DNA of 64,000 nucleotides from Monosporascus cannonballus (lineage: Eukaryota; Ascomycota; Sordariomycetes; Xylariales), in NCBI GenBank assembly GCA_004154925.1, contig QJNS01000059.1:1-64000 (forward strand), in the 5' to 3' direction. Under the pieces are notes generated by a model. The model was given only the letters and a program-made list of their open reading frames with translations. It was not told where the DNA came from and searched no databases. Positions 1,374 to 58,692 of this stretch are shown here, piece after piece. The stretch's first letter is position 1. Each line of letters begins with the position of its first letter. The position numbers and the translations under genes are program-made.

Positions 1374-1987
1374 ATGTCGTTTCGTATTTCCAAAATCCGT
1401 CGTATTTTTCGTTCTTCTACCGTTCGTCATACTGACCTCGTAAAAGCCTTTAACGAATTTGGGTACGAAATTATGCCTTACTTTTATTGTTTTTAGAAAA
1501 ATATAAAGTGTGAAATAATAGAAAACGTTTTAAGGTGTAAGGAATATGTTAATCGGGGTTGATTCTATAATAATATTGGCGTATTGCTTTTTTTTTGTAA
1601 AATATTTATCGGAAATATTAATATTTGGCATACGAAAAAATATTTGCTAAAAAACGGTTATTAAAATTTTAACGGCTTTATTTGAAAACTTAACGTCGTT
1701 ATTAAAAAAATAAATAAAGTATTTTTCGTTTTATTCGTTTGCGTAAATAAAAGGCGTTAATTTGTTCGAAAGGCGTTATTATTCTATAACGTAAGCTTTA
1801 GTTATTAAACGAATTAAAAAAATAAAAACGTTAGGAATAAAAATAATTAGAAACTGCCGTTATAATTATTATATTAATATAGGCCGCAGCCGATTAACTT
1901 AATATTTCGGTTATTAATTGGTTAATTATGGACTGGGATACGTTTGTTATTATTAGTAAAACTTTTTTAATAGGCGTTTGGCGCTAA
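1374..1987 (+). pseudogene. Antisense Zn2Cys6-like accessory ORF, element 1
   Basis: This frame lies opposite to gag-pol, between the chromodomain and the 3' LTR. It opens with ATG and MSFRISKIRRIF, then a six-cysteine motif with C-x2-C-x6-C-x8-C-x2-C-x6-C spacing (first, fifth and sixth Cys now Tyr), the spacing of fungal Zn(II)2Cys6 clusters. A lysine-rich stretch follows. The end (INWLIMDWDTF, then GVWR and stop) matches the tails of the copies in elements 3 and 5, but total length is not a multiple of three, so an indel separates the two halves. Several TAA/TAG/TGA codons interrupt it. Zinc and DNA binding are inferred from the motif; the protein's role in the element is unknown. Confidence 0.72.
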
Positions 1988-34300: not shown

Positions 34301-34770
34301 TTAAAATTAAAATTCGTACGAAACCAAATAAGCAAATTTTATAATGAAAAAAGGTTAAAAGGATTAATTTTCGAAAAGGGGAAAATAATTTTCCTTATTA
34401 TAAAAAATATTTAAATAAAACGACCCAGTAAAAAACTTAATTTCAAATATATCGGTCTATATAAAATTGCCAAAACAATCTTAAAAAATAATTATTAATT
34501 AGAACTTTTACGGGAAATTAAATTTTATTTAATTTTTTATATTTTTTTATTTAAGTTAACAGTAAATATAATTAAAATATATATGGCATAAAACGATATG
34601 GAAATAAAAAATAAATAAGTATATAAAGTAAAAAAAATATTTGATATGCGAAAATAAAACGGATTTACTTAATACCTAATTAAATAAAAAAATACCTTAA
34701 TTCCGAAAATACCTAGAAACCCGCCAAAAATCCTATTGGCGCTTAACGTTTATTAAAGAATTTTTATTAA
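31400..34770 (+). pseudogene. Gypsy pol relic, element 2
   Basis: Protease site near 31430 reads MDYGTLGRIYI. RT catalytic box near 32539-32570 reads VYYLNNIFIF, with both Asp now Asn. The RT end (FFKFVNYYKRFIRNF) lies near 32785-32835. Integrase core near 33790-34010. Chromodomain near 34620-34765 (YLIK, then NSENT-type WEP region). Domain order is that of chromoviruses, and every domain is interrupted. Confidence 0.75.
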
Positions 34771-35293
34771 TAACGGCGGAATTACCCAAAATAATAATAT
34801 TTTAATTTATTAAATTTACAAAGGGAAGCCCTTGGTTTACCGTATTTTAATTAATAACCTTTATTTTTCTTAAGGCCTAAACCTTAATTACGGATTTCGA
34901 TTTTAATTGCGCAAAATCGTTAAAATTATTTAAAGATTAAAGGGTACGATTAACGAATTTCGCACCTTAAGATTAATAATATTAACGTTAATAACGTATA
35001 CGAAAAAAACATATAAAAGTTTCGAACAAAGATTTTTCGGCCGTTAATTCTTTTTTTTTTAATTTTTTCGATTTTACGATATAATGATTAATTATAAAAA
35101 TAAGGATTTTTATTCTGTTATACGGGCGGTCTTAACGGATATATTCCTTATAACGAATAACATTATTTATTATTTAGTAATTAAATTGCGAAACAAAATA
35201 AAAAAAATAAGGTATTACGTCAAAACTTTCGAATTTAATTAAATTAACCAAAGCAAATCGCTATTCGGATTTGCGAAAACGATATTTGGACAT
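34733..35293 (-). pseudogene. Antisense Zn2Cys6-like accessory ORF, element 2
   Basis: Minus-strand frame of 187 codons, ATG at 35293 (MSKYRFRKSE) to TAG at 34733, in phase end to end but with internal stops. After PYFFYFVSQFNY all six metal-ligand positions of C-x2-C-x6-C-x8-C-x2-C-x6-C are Tyr, at exactly the spacing of the other copies. This fits TGT/TGC-to-TAT/TAC mutation by RIP. Its last codons overlap the end of the chromodomain frame on the other strand. Confidence 0.72.
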
Positions 35294-36130: not shown

Positions 36131-36470
36131 TGTTATGGCCTAACGAGCTGCGGCCTCAGAAAACGGTCGCAACGGTGACTAAGCCATATGGGTCGAGTCA
36201 CGTAATGGCTCGATAGGATCGATCGTAAAGCCTCTAGAGCCGGGTTGGACAGAATGAAACAATTAATTATAAAAATATTCATTATCTCCATAATTTAGAT
36301 AATTTTAGCTTATATCATTTACCAATATTAATCGTTTGCAATAAGGCATTTCCGGTATTAAGAAATGTAATACGATTACTGTATTTATTGCTTAGATTCT
36401 TACGATATTCCTATTAACATAAACCCGTTAACTTAGGTTTAATAATTAATTAAACCGTTTAGCCGTTATA
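36131..36470 (+). repeat. Element 3 5' LTR
   Basis: Begins TGTTATGGCC, ends GCCGTTATA. Its U3 carries a single GATCGATCGTAAAGCC unit (about 37 bp); the partner LTR has two. Confidence 0.92.
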
Positions 36471-38399: not shown

Positions 38400-41300
38400 T
38401 CTTAAAAATACGAATCGAAAGGTAATAATATACCGTAATAGTAAATTGCGGAATTCTGAGCGGAAATTACATTATACCAGATATGGTTAATAAGCATAAA
38501 CTGCTATAACAATATAAGTTAAAACCTTATACAGCAACGAATGCCGAAAGTTAGAAATTCGCCTACGATAACGGAAAAATCATACGCAAAATTAATTACC
38601 TCGGATTCTTATTTAAAGACGATATTAAACGGTTAATTTCGATATCGTTCTATTTGGGAATTACGATATAATCTTAGGATTACTATGGATACGCCAGTAT
38701 GGAACCTTAATTAATAACGGGACTGGCCAGGTAAGGTTCGCCTTATACCCCATTAACGGACAAAAAAAAGAATTAAGGTTTAAATACTTAATCGATAATA
38801 ATAAGGAATATAAATATAAGGACACGATAAATACTTTATTACCCAAAAAAATAAAATACAAAAAAAACGGATATTAAAGAAAAATACGACGTATTATTGT
38901 TACCATTAAAGCAAAATTAAAACAACTAAATAACGATTTAAAATAACAAAAACAATAGCATAAAAAATTAGAAACTTTAATTAATATATTACTATAATAT
39001 TATAAATACAAACAGCTTTTCAGAAAAGAATTCGATATAAAACTACCAAAATACAGCGAATAGAATTATGAAATAATCCTTAAAAAGGATTTTCAACAAA
39101 ATTTTACCCCATTTACAATCTTAACGGAAACGAATTACGTATTTTCAGAAAATACCTGGAAAATCGGCTACAAAAAAAATAAATTCGACTTTCGAAATTA
39201 CCGGCAAAATACCCTATATTTTTCGTATCTAAGAAAAATAAGAAATTGCAATTTCTAATTAACTATTAATAATTAAATAATATCATAATCAAAAATCAAA
39301 TATTATTACCTTTAATTACGGAAATAAAAAGCCAATTTTACGGAACTAAATAATTCATAATATTTGATCTTGAAAATAAATATAATCTTATTAAAATCAA
39401 AAAAAAATACAAATAAAAAATAATTTTTAAAACGAAATACGAATTATTTAAATATTTAGTTATATTAATAAGACTTATTAACGTATTAATAACTTTTTAG
39501 CAGATAATAAATTACGTATTACGAAAATACCTTAATATTTTCCTTATTTGCTATTTCGATAACATTTTTATCTTTTTAAAAACGGAAAAAACATACGCAA
39601 AATACGTCCATAAAGTTTTTTAAACTTTATAAGACGTAAGGTTACTTATTAACGCAAAAAAAAAATTAATTCCATACATAAAAAGTGAAATATCTGGAAT
39701 ATATTATTATCCTAAAACATATCAAGATAAACCCCAAGAAAATCGCTGTAATTACAAAATGGCAAACGTTAACAAAAATCAAAAAGGTACAGGCATTTTT
39801 TGGATTTGCCAACTATTACAGGAAATTTATTCGAAACTTTAGCAAAATAATTATACCCCTAATAAATCTTACGAAAAAAAAATCAAATAAACGCCAAATA
39901 CGAAAAAGGTATTTTAGGATATTAAGGATATAATTACCAGCGAACCAGTACTAATTATATACGATCTAAACCGCCCCGTTAAACTAAAAAACGATATTTC
40001 GAATTACGCGTTAAATACAGTAATCAAATAATAAGATAATAAAGGCAAACTGCACCTTATTACATTCTTTTCGTATAAACTAAAAAGAGCCAAGTTTAAT
40101 TACGGCATTCTAAATAAAAAATTTATGGCCATTATTATGGTATTTCGGGAATTTAAGTATTTCCTAAAGGAAAACTTATACCAGGTCAAAATTTATACGG
40201 ATTATCAAAATTTTACCCGATTTACCATAACCAAAAAACTTACAAAACAATAATTAAAATATGTAAGAAAATTGGCGAACTTCGACATTGTTATTATCTA
40301 TAAGAAGAAATCAGAAAACGGCAAAGTAAATACTTTAAACAAGCGACCCGACTTCGAAAAAAATTAATTAAAATTAATTATAAAATTTTTAATTCTACCA
40401 TAAAAGAATATTTACGCTTACGACAAGTTACGATAATTCGGGCAATACGTTATAATATGTACCAGAAAATTTAACAATATAACAATAATTTCTCAAAAAA
40501 CCAAAAAACAAATAAAATGTAAGTTCTAAAAAAATATTAGAAAAGTTTAATACGAAAAATATACGAATATTAATTATATAAATATCCAGGGATTTACAAA
40601 ACCCTAAAAAGATTTTAACGCATATATTTTTTTCCTAAAATAAAATTAACGGTATAAAAAATTATACGGCAATATAATATTTGCGCCAAAATAAAAGCAT
40701 AACAATACAAACCATACGGGAAATTACAGCCATTACTAATCATAAAACGATTATAATATTTAATTATATTTAACTTTATTACTAAACTTCCTATATCAGA
40801 AAATCCAGTTACGGGAATATATTACGATAACATCTTTGTAATCGTCGATCGATTTACGAAATTTTCCTATTTCCTACCATATTATAAGGACATAAACGCC
40901 GAATAACTAATATATAATTTCTTTAAATATATTTTCAATATATACGGATTACCAATAAAAATTATATCAGTTAAATAATTAATATTTGTATTTAAATTTT
41001 GACAAAGTTTAATAATATAAATCGGCCTAAATTATAAATTATTTAACGTATTTAAACTTTAAATTAATAAATAAATAAAAAGAATAAATTAAACTTTAAA
41101 AATTTACTTATAATATTACATTAATTACGAATAGAATAACTAAATTTAAAAGTTACCAATTATTTAATTAATTTATAATATTAGTTATTATAAAAGTATT
41201 AAGGTAATACCTACGAACGCAAATTTTGGTTTTATTTCAAAAATTTACAAAAAAGTACGCGACGACGGTCCAATTAATATCAAAATAATTTTTACGTTAA

Positions 41301-41806
41301 AATAATTACGATAACTGTATTATGACATAAAAACAGAATTGGAATTCGTACGGAATCAAATAAGCAAGTATTATAACCAAAAAAGGTTAAAAAAATTAAT
41401 TTTCGAAAAAGGGAAAATGGTTTTTCTCGCCATAAAAATATTCAAATAAAATAACCTAGCAAAAAACTCGATTTCAAATATATCGGTCCATATAAAATCA
41501 CTAAAAAAATCTTAAAAAACAATTATTAATTAGAACTTTTACCAAAAGTCAAATTTTGTCAAATTTTTTATGTTTTCTTATTCAAATTAGCAGCAAATAT
41601 AATTAAAGTATATACGATATAAAATGACATAAAAGTAAAAAATAAACGAATATACGAAATAAAAAAAATACTTAATATATAAAAATAAAACGGATTTACC
41701 GAGTACTTAATTAAATAAAAAAATACCTAAATTCCGAAAATACCTGGGAATTTACTAAGAATTTTATTGGCGCCCAGCGCCTATTAAAAAACTTTTACCA
41801 ATAACG
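38400..41806 (+). pseudogene. Gypsy pol relic, element 3
   Basis: Protease site near 38445-38480 (VNCGILSGNYIIPD, Asp now Asn). RT box CYFDNIFIF near 39546-39578 (YFDD with Asp to Asn). Open RT/RNase H segment 39685-39933 includes KVQAFFGFANYYRKFIRNF. RNase H and the HHCC zinc finger should follow to about 40700. The integrase core at about 40820-41060 reads NIFVIVDRFTKFSYF and FKFWQSL. The chromodomain at about 41640-41806 reads NGFTEYLIK, then SENTWEFTKNFIGAQRLLKNF. The chromodomain assigns the element to the chromoviruses. Confidence 0.85.
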
Positions 41807-42348
41807 CCGAAATCGGCAGGGTTAAAAGTTCCCCAGTTAATAAACGACCAATTTATGGATTCCAGGTTAAACCAGTCGAAAAAAGGAGCGGCCTCCGCCG
41901 TAGCAATTTTGGCGGCCTTCCGATTAATCTGTTTCTTTCGACGTTCCAACTTATTTAATTCTTCCAAGGACCGAAACTTACAAAATAGCATACGTACTAT
42001 ACGATCGGCCCATAATTTCTTTTATTTTCGAAAACGACGAACCTTAACCTGCGTTTGTTTTATTTCTTTTTCGGCTTTCTTAAATTTTGTTTTAACCTTA
42101 AGGTAATTAAAAACAAGCTTTTCGAATTGAAATATGGAAAAACCGTTAATATCATAAAGGCCCTAGTTCCGCGTTACGTATTTTTCATACCTGGAAAAAT
42201 CCGACAAAAAAGTACGACAAAATAACAATCCGTAACGAATATAATAAGAACATACTGGCATATTTACGGCTCGAAAAATAATTAATTTAAGCAAATTATT
42301 TCGTTTTTTCGTTTTTCTGTTAATCAGTTTTTTAATACGATCTGACAT
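41764..42348 (-). pseudogene. Antisense Zn2Cys6-like accessory ORF, element 3
   Basis: The best copy: 195 codons in phase on the minus strand, ATG at 42348 (MSDRIKKLINRK), only two internal stops (after EKYVTRN and after VRRFRK). The cysteine motif reads C-x2-Y-x7-C-x9-Y-x2-Y-x7-Y around MPVCSYYIRYGLLFC, close to the Zn(II)2Cys6 pattern with RIP-type Cys-to-Tyr changes. Next come about 90 charged, Lys/Glu-rich residues likely to form a coiled coil (KFKKAEKEIKQTQVK; LEELNKLERRKK), then an Ala-rich and Trp-rich tail (FNLESINWSFINWG) ending GAGRQ. The last 40 bases overlap the chromodomain frame on the opposite strand. Confidence 0.8.
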
Positions 42349-42418
42349 AATGGCGGGAAGGAAACTTACAAAAGAAAAAAAAAATCTTCGGGACGAAAAT
42401 TATGGAAAAGGAGGATCG

Positions 42419-42795
42419 TATTATAACCTAACGGGCTGCGGCCTCAGAAAACGGTCGTAACGGTAACTAAGCCATATGGGTCGAGTTACGTAATGGCTCA
42501 ACAGGATCGATCGTAAAAGCCTTTAGAGCCGGGCTCGATAAGATCGATCGTAAAGCCTCCAGAACCGGGCTTAACAAAATGAAAAAATTAAGTATAAAAA
42601 TATTTATTACTTCCAGAATTTAGATAACTTCAGCTTGCAACATTTATTAATACTAATCGTTTGCAATAAAATATTTCCGGTATTAAGAGACGTAATACGA
42701 TTACTATATCCATTGCTCAGATTCCCACGATACTCCTGCCAACATAAACCCGTAGACTTAGGTTTAATAGTTGGTTAAACCGCCTAGCCGTCACA
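42419..42795 (+). repeat. Element 3 3' LTR
   Basis: Begins TATTATAACC after the polypurine tract GGAAAAGGAGGATCG and ends GCCGTCACA, then the TTTAG duplication. A 37-bp U3 unit is duplicated (about 42510-42570), which explains the extra length over the 5' LTR. Confidence 0.93.
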
Positions 42796-42939
42796 TTTAG
42801 TTCGTTATGTTTTAACATTATCATAATTTTTACCCAATAGGTACCCGTAGGTGGTTAGTTCGTAGGTAGGTAATCGTGGGTATCTTTGAAAAAATGCCAA
42901 GACTACCCACGGTTACCCACCCACAGTCGTGGGTAGTCC
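42796..42939. repeat. TACCCA/TGGGTA-rich segment with hairpin
   Basis: Interspersed TACCC, GTAGGT and TGGGTA motifs. A perfect 10-bp inverted repeat GACTACCCAC/GTGGGTAGTC occupies 42901-42910 and 42929-42938. Two tandem GGGTACCCATT units follow at 42942-42963 and run into the NmrA-like frame. It is not a known telomere repeat. Confidence 0.7.
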
Positions 42940-43851
42940 GTGGGTACCCATTGGGTACCCATTGCAAACCCTACTGGCTACCAAGGCGGCGGTGTAGCCG
43001 AGCAGTTGCGCAAGCTTGACTGGACGGTCCACGCGACAGTTCGCAAGCTTGAATCCCAGAAGGCAACCACTCTGGCCTCCATAGGCGTGAAACTCACCCA
43101 ACGGGATTGGGACAACGAGGAAGCCCTCAGGTCCAGCATTGCGGGCTGCGATAAAGTCTTTCTCTGTCTGATGTCGACCGTTGACGACTTCGACCGCGAG
43201 CGCCGCCACGCCGTCAAGATTGTTAGGATCGCCAAAGCCGCCGGTGTGAAACAGGTCGTGACCTCCACAAGCTTGGGTGTGTCGCAAATTGACGCGGCGG
43301 ACCCGCTCCTAAAGCCGAGCTTGCTGCAGGAGCTCCTAGTGGTGAAGAAGGCCGTCGAGCAAGCTGTGCTCGACGGCGAATTCGAGTCCTGGACGTTTTT
43401 AAGGCCGGCATATTTCATGACTAATTTCCTAAAGCCAAACATCGACAACTACAGCGATATCGTGTCGGAGAAGATCTGGAAATCCGCGATGACGCCAGAT
43501 ACGAAGATCGGGTTCATCGACCCTCACGATATCGGACAGTTCGCAATTGCAGCGTTCAAGGACCCGAAGGGGTTCAAGAACCGTTCCCTAGGGCTCGTAA
43601 GCGAGCTGCTTACGCCGCAAGAAGCAATGGATCGCTTGGGGAAAGCGATGGGCAGCCCAATCAAAGCGACCTTCATGACCGACGAGGAGATCGCTGCGGC
43701 GCATCCAATGACTGTTCTTTTTCGAATGGAGAAGTCGATGAGGAATATGTCTGATTATGTTGATTTGGAAGAGTTGGGCAAGATTGTTCCCTTGACTAGC
43801 TTCAGCGAGTTTTTGGACAGGGAGCAGGGTAGAGTTAAGAAGCTTACTTGA
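42940..43851 (+). CDS. NmrA-like NAD(P)-binding protein, 5'-truncated
   Basis: An uninterrupted 303-codon frame with normal GC content and codon use. NmrA-like proteins are Rossmann-fold NAD(P) binders, some redox-sensing regulators and some oxidoreductases. The dinucleotide loop appears as NPTGYQGGGVAEQL, where GATGxxGGG-V is usual, so the first glycine and the preceding first beta strand are missing. Later features fit the family: VRKLES, a GCDKVFLC strand, KIVRIAKAAGVKQVVTSTS, and WTFLRPAYFMTNF near residue 160. The frame has no ATG before 43171 (residue 78). Its upstream codons are GTG GGT ACC CAT TGG, made of the TACCCA repeat. So the original 5' end has probably been lost or replaced near 42966, and expression is doubtful. 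No RIP signs, implying single copy. Confidence 0.8.
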   Translation: MGTHWVPIANPTGYQGGGVAEQLRKLDWTVHATVRKLESQKATTLASIGVKLTQRDWDNEEALRSSIAGCDKVFLCLMSTVDDFDRERRHAVKIVRIAKAAGVKQVVTSTSLGVSQIDAADPLLKPSLLQELLVVKKAVEQAVLDGEFESWTFLRPAYFMTNFLKPNIDNYSDIVSEKIWKSAMTPDTKIGFIDPHDIGQFAIAAFKDPKGFKNRSLGLVSELLTPQEAMDRLGKAMGSPIKATFMTDEEIAAAHPMTVLFRMEKSMRNMSDYVDLEELGKIVPLTSFSEFLDREQGRVKKLT

Positions 43852-53666: not shown

Positions 53667-54215
53667 ATATTTATTAAAAAATTTTCATTAATATCGACGG
53701 GAATATCCTAATTAATAATTGACCAATTAGTAACCAAGATATCGGGCCAGTCAGCCGCGACTTACGTTAACGTAATAGCCGTAACGGCAGCCTTTAATTA
53801 TTGTTTTTTTTTTAAAACGTTCGAATTCCTTTATAATTTCCGTACCTTTAATATTACGACGAAATATTTCCATATTACGATAATGGAATAACTGCTGTTA
53901 TTTTGGCAAACGATTTAACTTATTAATAACTGTTTGTAACGTTTCGTAAACTTATTCCTTTTTACGTTTTAAATAATCTTTTTTATCCAGAAAGTTTTAA
54001 TATTTAATTTCCGAAAAACCAAAAATTTTATAAGGATTATTATAATAAATATAACGCGCATATTTTAAAAAATCCCGAATAACTTTATATTTTGTATTCT
54101 TCTTTTTATAACGGAAATAAAAAGATATTTTAAAACCAAAACGTTAAATACGTTTTAAAAGAATAAAAGCGTTAATACGTTTACGAAAACGAAATTCTTC
54201 TACGCGATTCGATAT
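53667..54215 (-). pseudogene. Antisense Zn2Cys6-like accessory ORF, element 4
   Basis: Minus-strand frame starting at ATA (was ATG) at 54215. RFRKRINAFILL is followed by YFRYKKKNTKYKVIRDFLKY and a further Y-x2-Y-x6-Y. All six ligands of C-x2-C-x6-C-x8-C-x2-C-x6-C are Tyr at perfect spacing. Then come GFSEIKY, KKDYLKRKKE, RNMEIFRRNIKGTEIIKEF and the AVTAITLT and WPDI tail shared with element 5. The last few codons are cut off by the Fot1-like element and resume at 51782-51791. Confidence 0.76.
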
Positions 54216-58122: not shown

Positions 58123-58692
58123 ATGCTTATTATATTAGGCCGAATCGAAAAATTTCGTTCCCGTAAACGTATTAACGTTTTAATTTTTTTAGAATGCACT
58201 GAACGTTTTAATTTTAAAATGTTTTTTTATTTTCGTTATAAAAAGGAAAATACGAAATGTAAGGTTATTCGAAAGTTTTTAAAATGTGCGTAATGCATTT
58301 ATTATGGGGGTCCTTATAACGTTTTTAGTTTTTCGGAGGTTAAGCATAAAAAACTTTTTAATAAAAAGGACCGTTTAAAGTATAAAAAGGAATAGATTCG
58401 TAAAACGTTATGCGCTGCCGCCAACAAATTGGATCGGTTACAGAAATAAAGGCGGTTGTTTCGTCGCCGTAATATGGAAATGTTTCGTTACGGCATTTAA
58501 GGGGCGGAAATTATGGAAAAATTTAGGCGTTTCGAAAAGGAATAAGAATAATTAGAGGCCGCCGTTACGGCTATTACGTTAACAGAGGTTGCGGCTAATT
58601 GGCCCGATATTTCGGCTATTAATTGGTCAACTTTTAATTAGGACGCGCCTATTGCCGTTAATGAAAGTTTTTTAGTAAACGTTGGGCGCTAA
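58123..58692 (+). pseudogene. Antisense Zn2Cys6-like accessory ORF, element 5
   Basis: 189 codons in phase from ATG (MLIILGRIEKFRSRKRINVL) to TAA, on the strand opposite gag-pol. The motif reads Y-x2-Y-x6-C-x8-C-x2-C-x6-Y (third, fourth and fifth Cys intact: KENTKC, FLKCA, C-IYYGG), the Zn(II)2Cys6 spacing. It continues FSEVKHKKLFNKKDRLKYKKE, KLDRLQK, RRRNMEMFRYGI, EKFRRFEKE, then LEAAVTAITLTEVAANWPDI and SAINWSTFN. About six internal TAA/TAG stops, most explicable as former Gln or Arg codons. The tail overlaps the chromodomain on the other strand. Confidence 0.79.

What the first reader, a model, noticed from the sequence alone, without database searches (positions are those of the whole stretch)
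41764..42348. Conserved antisense gene with Zn(II)2Cys6-type motif inside a fungal Gypsy chromovirus
Seen: all five Gypsy elements whose 3' region is in the window (1374-1987 +, 34733-35293 -, 41764-42348 -, 53667-54215 -, 58123-58692 +) carry, opposite to gag-pol, a 187-195 codon frame. It has six Cys (or RIP-derived Tyr) spaced C-x2-C-x6-C-x8-C-x2-C-x6-C (x7/x9 in element 3), then a charged probable coiled coil and a conserved INW/WPDI tail. In elements 2 and 4 all six positions are Tyr in exact register. Known: that spacing is the fungal Zn2Cys6 binuclear cluster consensus. Inference: the retrotransposon carries a DNA-binding regulator in antisense, perhaps acting on its own LTR, on host chromatin or on target choice. 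I recall Cys-rich coiled-coil hypothetical proteins beside fungal Gypsy elements but know no described function.
Basis: partly seen in the sequence, partly recalled or inferred. Interest (0 to 1): 0.88.

Follow-up and report, generated by a model that had tools for sequence, protein, structure and literature searches.

The report
Antisense zinc-cluster-like gene in fungal retrotransposons
A family of fungal jumping elements carries, backwards beside its tail repeat, a small gene for a zinc-cluster-like protein with a long helix, probably a regulator of the element itself; such backward genes are known in fungi, but this domain and the repeat arrays in the element's control region may be new.

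Summary
All five elements carry the antisense frame beside the 3' LTR, broken by repeat-induced point mutation (RIP). The six Cys/Tyr positions hold in 30 of 30 cells, and their registers occur nowhere else in six frames of the window. In 68 genomic copies of three subfamilies the six columns are TGY or TAY in 398 of 408 cells, so Cys is ancestral. An intact natural relative (194 aa, Monosporascus sp. 5C6A, profile E = 9.7e-59) has all six Cys. It scores 19.6 bits against Pfam Zn_clus (cut-off 21), so I call it Zn2Cys6-like, not a member. Such an antisense gene is already known: brtn of Boty-like elements; homology is untested. New lead: U3 carries subfamily-typical tandem arrays (periods about 36, 9, 35), all rich in GGCTT (top of 512 five-mers), beside TTACGTAA. 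Best reading: an LTR-driven, element-encoded nucleic-acid-binding regulator of its own U3, working like plant VANC proteins. The coding gene is shown; the function is inferred. New variant of a known kind.

The parts
41764..42348 (-). antisense zinc-cluster-like gene, copy 3 (2 internal stops; x2-x7-x9-x2-x7)
1374..1987 (+). antisense gene, copy 1 (a further subfamily; heavily broken)
34733..35293 (-). antisense gene, copy 2 (all six positions Tyr)
53667..54215 (-). antisense gene, copy 4 (all six positions Tyr)
58123..58692 (+). antisense gene, copy 5
36131..36470 (+). 5' LTR of element 3 (approximate)
42418..42796 (+). 3' LTR of element 3 (approximate); presumed antisense promoter
39231..41580 (+). 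span of the pol domains detected in element 3, broken: RT, RNase H, integrase zinc-binding, SH3_Tf2-1, in different frames
42505..42572 (.). U3 array of element 3: two GATCGATC units (42505, 42542) with AAGCC/GGCTT at 42517, 42553, 42568
42486..42493 (.). TTACGTAA palindrome in the 3' LTR of element 3; also one each at 1222, 35453, 54386, 57956 in the other four 3' LTRs (absent from element 3's 5' LTR)

Best explanation
The gene is a conserved accessory gene of a large group of fungal chromodomain Gypsy elements. It is transcribed from the 3' LTR against gag-pol (inferred). It encodes a protein of about 190 residues: an N-terminal helix, a six-cysteine zinc cluster resembling fungal Zn2Cys6, a helix of about 83 residues, and a Trp-containing tail. 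Most likely it dimerises through the long helix and binds short repeats in the U3 of its own LTR (arrays that share GGCTT beside TTACGTAA), controlling transcription or silencing of its own subfamily. That would be a fungal counterpart in logic, not in homology, of plant VANC anti-silencing proteins. Shown: gene, place, ancestral cysteines, coding constraint, intact relative, predicted long helix, U3 arrays. Inferred: transcription, zinc, dimerisation, DNA binding, target, effect.
For: Six columns TGY/TAY in 177 of 180 (fam3), 173 of 180 (fam5) and 48 of 48 (fam2) cells; the decayed-Arg columns still show CGY, the six do so in 1 cell. Shared transversions by codon position 14/9/28, p = 0.003. 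Intact relative P0001 with exact C-x2-C-x6-C-x8-C-x2-C-x6-C; Zn_clus E = 0.001. Helix 69-151 predicted, pLDDT 81-96 by blocks over residues 71-150. Own-genome matches: 150, 151 and 150 for three queries, at the scoring limit, many partial. U3 arrays: period 35-37 in 19 of 30 fam3 copies (shuffles 0 of 150), period 8-10 in 29 of 30 fam5 (16 of 150), period 34-36 in 7 of 8 fam2 (0 of 40). GGCTT: 11.9-21.7 per kb in U3 against 0.6-0.9 in the pol flank, first of 512 5-mers by minimum enrichment over the three (16x). TTACGTAA in 17 of 30, 24 of 30 and 7 of 8 copies, about 3% in shuffles of the first two sets, and in 5 of 5 window 3' LTRs. VANC binds short motifs in tandem arrays that vary between related elements (PMC5735166, abstract and passages).
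Against: No binding or expression data. Zn_clus gathering score is missed. The first loop of the intact relative is acidic. CGG, the half-site I recall for many zinc clusters, is not enriched in U3. The cluster region itself is modelled at pLDDT below 50. The heptad test is weak: P = 0.017 at period 3.5, 0.12 at 3.6, 0.07 over 3.4-3.7. LTR arrays and palindromes may serve host factors. GGCTT and TTACGTAA hold no CpA/TpG, so RIP tends to spare them. The motif was picked after looking, and common descent of the arrays is not excluded (fam3 and fam2 have nearly the same period). One of 30 fam5 and one of 8 fam2 copies have no GGCTT in U3; element 3's 5' LTR has no TTACGTAA. Shuffled sequences give some array of period 6 or more in 96 of 345.
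Confidence: 0.42

Rival explanations
1. The protein is an RNA-binding or nucleocapsid-like accessory factor that uses its two CxxCx6C units on element RNA or in particle assembly, not on LTR DNA.
For: The two halves resemble each other (7 of 14 residues identical, 3 of them Cys), and Pfam's best stretch aligns the first half to positions 17-35 of the 39-position Zn_clus model, so it is not a textbook zinc cluster. Its first 29 residues are basic by count (sequence).
Against: Antisense placement separates it from gag expression; the spacing is that of Zn2Cys6, not the CCHC knuckle (recalled).
Confidence: 0.2
2. The protein acts through protein contacts: a suppressor or adaptor of host silencing, or a partner of integrase or chromodomain in target choice, without own DNA specificity.
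For: Acidic first loop in the intact relative; long helix; Trp-containing tail in both aligned subfamilies.
Against: Does not explain the U3 arrays with a common core, though these may be unrelated.
Confidence: 0.17
3. The U3 arrays and TTACGTAA are sites of host transcription factors (a bZIP for TTACGTAA, recalled), and the antisense gene is independent of them.
For: Enhancer repeats are common in LTRs (general knowledge); TTACGTAA is shared by the subfamilies looked at.
Against: Array units and, between fam5 and the others, periods differ, more than a common host factor would need.
Confidence: 0.2
4. Chance, or a constraint of the sense strand, gives a Cys-like register without any antisense protein.
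For: All listed matches in this genome that cover the gene end to end carry stops; the lists are capped.
Against: Intact homologue with E = 9.7e-59; register found nowhere else in the window; transversion periodicity.
Confidence: 0.01

Closest known systems
brtn, antisense gene of Boty-like Gypsy elements of Botrytis cinerea and Sclerotinia (Zhao et al. 2011, Virology 417:248; paper not held, seen only as cited in PMC7264820, PMC8365987, PMC4227169, PMC5987419)
   Same: Additional antisense gene between pol and 3' LTR of a fungal Gypsy element whose gag-pol has a chromodomain
   Different: Whether BRTN has the six Cys or any sequence similarity could not be tested; no protein search was left and no BRTN sequence was at hand
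Antisense additional ORFs (aORF-3R) of plant LTR retrotransposons: Grande1, RIRE2, Retand, PvRetro13 (PMC7264820 passages)
   Same: Same place and orientation; function not known
   Different: Neither 'zinc' nor 'DNA binding' occurs in that review's main text; homology not tested
Fungal Zn(2)-Cys(6) binuclear cluster, Pfam PF00172, e.g. GAL4
   Same: Six-Cys spacing, N-terminal place, long helix behind it; GAL4 is a weak sequence match (E = 1.1)
   Different: Below gathering score; acidic first loop; x7/x9/x7 in fam3; little room for an activation domain
VANC anti-silencing proteins of Arabidopsis VANDAL elements (PMC5735166, abstract and passages)
   Same: Element-encoded accessory protein; short motifs in tandem arrays of the element's own noncoding DNA that vary between related elements
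   Different: Plant elements that I recall as DNA transposons; no sequence relation claimed; binding here not shown

Membership tests
Zn2Cys6 (PF00172) | Six Cys, C-x2-C-x6-C-x(5-12)-C-x2-C-x(6-8)-C (recalled consensus) | tested here: met
   P0001 and fam5 exact; fam3 has x7 in the first gap, outside the strict consensus
Zn2Cys6 (PF00172) | Pfam gathering score 21 bits | tested here: not met
   19.6 bits, E = 0.001 for P0001; no Zn_clus hit in the 16 broken copies scanned
Zn2Cys6 (PF00172) | Lys/Arg-rich first loop contacting DNA (recalled) | tested here: not met
   CSRCEKEGVDC in P0001; fam3 loops hold Arg in part
Zn2Cys6 (PF00172) | Coiled-coil dimerisation helix behind the cluster | tested here: inconclusive
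   Helix 69-151 predicted; heptad signal P = 0.017 to 0.12
Zn2Cys6 (PF00172) | Two zinc ions and CGG-type DNA half-sites | not testable with these tools
   No biochemistry; CGG not enriched in U3
Antisense aORF between pol and 3' LTR (brtn-like class) | Antisense, between pol and 3' LTR, kept in many copies | tested here: met
   Element 3; related loci; 150, 151 and 150 own-genome matches at the scoring limit. The share of elements that lack the gene was not measured.
Antisense aORF between pol and 3' LTR (brtn-like class) | Sequence homology to BRTN | not tested
VANC-like anti-silencing system (works like) | Tandem motif arrays in own noncoding DNA that differ between subfamilies | tested here: met
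   motif chosen after looking
VANC-like anti-silencing system (works like) | Protein binds the motif and removes silencing | not testable with these tools

The most novel reading that the evidence does not exclude
Fungal chromoviruses encode, in antisense, a zinc-cluster regulator that co-evolves with subfamily-typical GGCTT arrays in its own U3 and counteracts host silencing of its own copies: a VANC-like self-recognition system in fungi, arisen independently and built on a fungal-type zinc cluster.
Probability: 0.18. Interest if true: 0.82.

Novelty: new variant of a known kind. Interest (0 to 1): 0.5.

Why it matters
Antisense accessory genes occur in plant and fungal LTR elements, and a review says their function is not known (PMC7264820 passages). 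Here such a gene has a recognisable domain, an intact natural protein that can be made in the laboratory, and candidate DNA targets (GGCTT arrays, TTACGTAA) in the same element. That makes the old question of what these genes do directly testable, and a fungal self-regulating or anti-silencing factor would open element-host conflict in RIP-bearing fungi to experiment.

Tried and rejected
Single broken copies as protein queries found nothing (77 and 17 candidates, none at E <= 10). The profile A1, made of 16 of the 60 fetched copies, then found one protein. Pfam on broken copies gave only hits far below cut-offs. PDB: weak coiled-coil hits for the profile; GAL4 at E = 1.1 for P0001, behind unrelated chains at E = 0.06 and 0.46. 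IMG/VR scan with P0001: no relative. AlphaFold model: mean pLDDT 63.8, cluster region unreliable, so no fold search was run. CGG half-sites in U3: not enriched, so a GAL4-type target is not supported. tblastn of P0001 against gene regions, best frame: antisense frame in 30 of 30 fam5, 15 of 30 fam3 (14 without hit, 1 best in frame -3), 2 of 4 further window copies (copies 1 and 2 without hit); fam3 and copies 1 and 2 are therefore tied to P0001 by alignment, profile and register rather than by this test. Matches without stops are partial (C66, 142 of 189 query residues; C555, 88 of 194) and are not an intact host gene. No full-length match without stops was among those listed; the lists are capped. 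Paper searches for a zinc-cluster antisense gene in fungal LTR elements listed 20 of 50, 20 of 112, 15 of 38 and 10 of 47 papers; none of the listed titles or abstract starts describes one; of these, passages of PMC8365987 were read. Paper searches for Boty/brtn; for Monosporascus: nothing useful. PMC9409477 was a false 'brtn' hit; passages of PMC3158057 named Boty only. On recount the array numbers turned out to be rows, not copies; copies were counted (19 of 30, 29 of 30, 7 of 8).

Full report
Setting. The window is an AT-rich stretch with the marks of RIP, in an 88.8 Mb assembly of 618 contigs. A GC-rich NmrA-like gene (42940-43851 +, PF05368 E = 6.4e-34) lies just behind element 3.

Anatomy of element 3. 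The 5' LTR lies at about 36131-36470 and the 3' LTR at about 42418-42796. Pieces of pol on the + strand match RT, RNase H, integrase zinc-binding and SH3_Tf2-1 models between about 39231 and 41580, in different frames because the copy is broken. In related loci L046 and L037 a chromodomain (PF00385, E = 4e-11 and 6e-11) accompanies SH3_Tf2-1; L045, the third locus scanned, gave SH3_Tf2-1 only. The antisense gene occupies 41764-42348 (-), between pol and the 3' LTR. Its ATG is about 70 nt from the LTR; in the other four elements I estimate 75-90 nt from the matches.

Is it a gene? The x2-x6-x8-x2-x6 C/Y register of four elements occurs nowhere else in six frames of the window (4 hits in 127,996 starts), and copy 3's x2-x7-x9-x2-x7 register occurs once. 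Own-genome searches with three window copies reached the scoring limit: 150, 151 and 150 matches out of 876, 1459 and 1851 candidates, many partial; overlap between the lists was not checked. I read 30, 30 and 8 of these (L001-L030, L031-L060, L061-L068; each set includes the window's own copy). At the six positions codons are TGY or TAY in 177 of 180, 173 of 180 and 48 of 48 cells. RIP turns TGY into TAY, so Cys is ancestral. In fam2 TGY itself is seen at only 3 of 6 columns. Other columns with two or more TGY still hold CGY and are decayed Arg. RIP makes only transitions, so transversions shared by at least two copies test coding constraint: 4/4/11 (fam3, p = 0.076) and 10/5/17 (fam5, p = 0.033), together 14/9/28 (p = 0.003) by codon position. 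The antisense frame has the lowest mean stop count of six frames in both families (5.8 and 5.9; the next lowest 7.97 and 8.2).

Intact relative. A profile of 16 copies (A1: 8 fam3, 8 fam5) found one protein in 5.8 billion: P0001, 194 aa, E = 9.7e-59. It is 45-58% identical to the eight fam5 copies in A2 and 21-27% to the six fam3 copies. It has all six Cys in x2-x6-x8-x2-x6 spacing and no stop. Pfam Zn_clus: E = 0.001, 19.6 bits, cut-off 21. The best Zn_clus stretch pairs residues 30-49, the first half of P0001's cluster, with profile positions 17-35 of 39. The two halves resemble each other: CSRCEKEGVDCKVF and CARCIRHGGPCDVF, 7 of 14 identical including the three Cys. The predicted fold is a helix at 2-25, a poorly modelled cluster (pLDDT below 50 for 27-67), and one helix 69-151 with high confidence over most of its length. 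Heptad periodicity is suggestive only (P = 0.017 at 3.5, 0.12 at 3.6, 0.07 over 3.4-3.7). A direct tblastn of P0001 to the gene regions finds the antisense frame best in 30 of 30 fam5 but only 15 of 30 fam3 copies, and misses window copies 1 and 2.

Control region. I compared up to 650 nt upstream of the antisense ATG. With element 3's LTR as query, 28 of 30 fam5 copies align over its outer part only (query 4-217 of 383), whereas the fam3 copies align over most of it: the U3 differs. At 140-340 nt upstream lie tandem arrays: period 35-37 in 19 of 30 fam3 copies (shuffles 0 of 150), period 8-10 (GGCTTAAGG-like) in 29 of 30 fam5 (shuffles 16 of 150), period 34-36 in 7 of 8 fam2 (shuffles 0 of 40). 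The fam3 and fam2 units are of nearly equal length but different sequence. Some array of period 6 or more occurs in 96 of 345 shuffles, so only the specific periods and units count. GGCTT (either strand) has 14.8, 21.7 and 11.9 occurrences per kb in U3 of fam3, fam5 and fam2 against 0.6-0.9 in the pol flank. Against base composition it is the 5-mer with the highest minimum enrichment over the three subfamilies (16-19x, first of 512). TTACGTAA lies about 144-172 nt upstream of the ATG in 17 of 30 fam3 and 24 of 30 fam5 copies, about 3% in shuffles of these; it is present in 7 of 8 fam2 copies and in 5 of 5 window 3' LTRs, but not in element 3's 5' LTR. Both motifs lack CpA and TpG and so tend to escape RIP, which inflates their survival; the motif was found by looking; common descent of the arrays is not excluded. 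CGG is not enriched.

Mechanism. I take the protein to be an element-encoded nucleic-acid-binding regulator made from the 3' LTR in antisense and acting on U3 repeats of its own subfamily. The logic is that of VANC proteins, which bind short motifs in tandem arrays that vary between related elements (PMC5735166, abstract and passages). Steps shown: gene, place, Cys, constraint, intact relative, arrays. Steps inferred: transcription, zinc, dimer, DNA binding, effect.

Known and new. [quoted passage not shown] PMC8365987 passages; PMC4227169 passages; PMC5987419 passage). The original brtn paper is not held, so whether BRTN is homologous or has the same cysteines is open. I recall, without a call, many fungal hypothetical proteins with this Cys spacing; that is a lead only. 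The kind is therefore known; the zinc-cluster-like domain together with the U3 arrays is the new variant as far as the searches named here go.

Noticed in passing
1222, 35453, 42486, 54386, 57956: Exactly one TTACGTAA palindrome in each of the five 3' LTRs, shared by subfamilies whose U3 arrays differ; possible host bZIP site or antisense promoter element.
   Followed up: partly
L003 (-261 to -146 of the ATG), L062 (-307 to -172), L033 (-280 to -196): U3 tandem arrays with subfamily-typical units (periods 36, 35, 9) and variable copy number; the arrays hold GGCTT.
   Followed up: partly
L031-L059, gene against whole locus: The antisense gene has a higher G+C (0.27-0.43) than its whole locus (0.18-0.32) in 29 of 29 fam5 copies printed; origin composition or uneven RIP, not resolved.
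   Followed up: no
42830-42970: GC-rich minisatellite-like stretch (GGGTACCCA / CCCACGG units, read by eye) between the 3' LTR of element 3 and the NmrA-like gene.
   Followed up: no
42940-43851 (+): NmrA-like gene with a 303-codon open frame in a GC-rich island directly behind element 3, apparently spared by RIP.
   Followed up: partly
4-196: 9-nt spacing of weak repeat copies at the window start (family D4).
   Followed up: no
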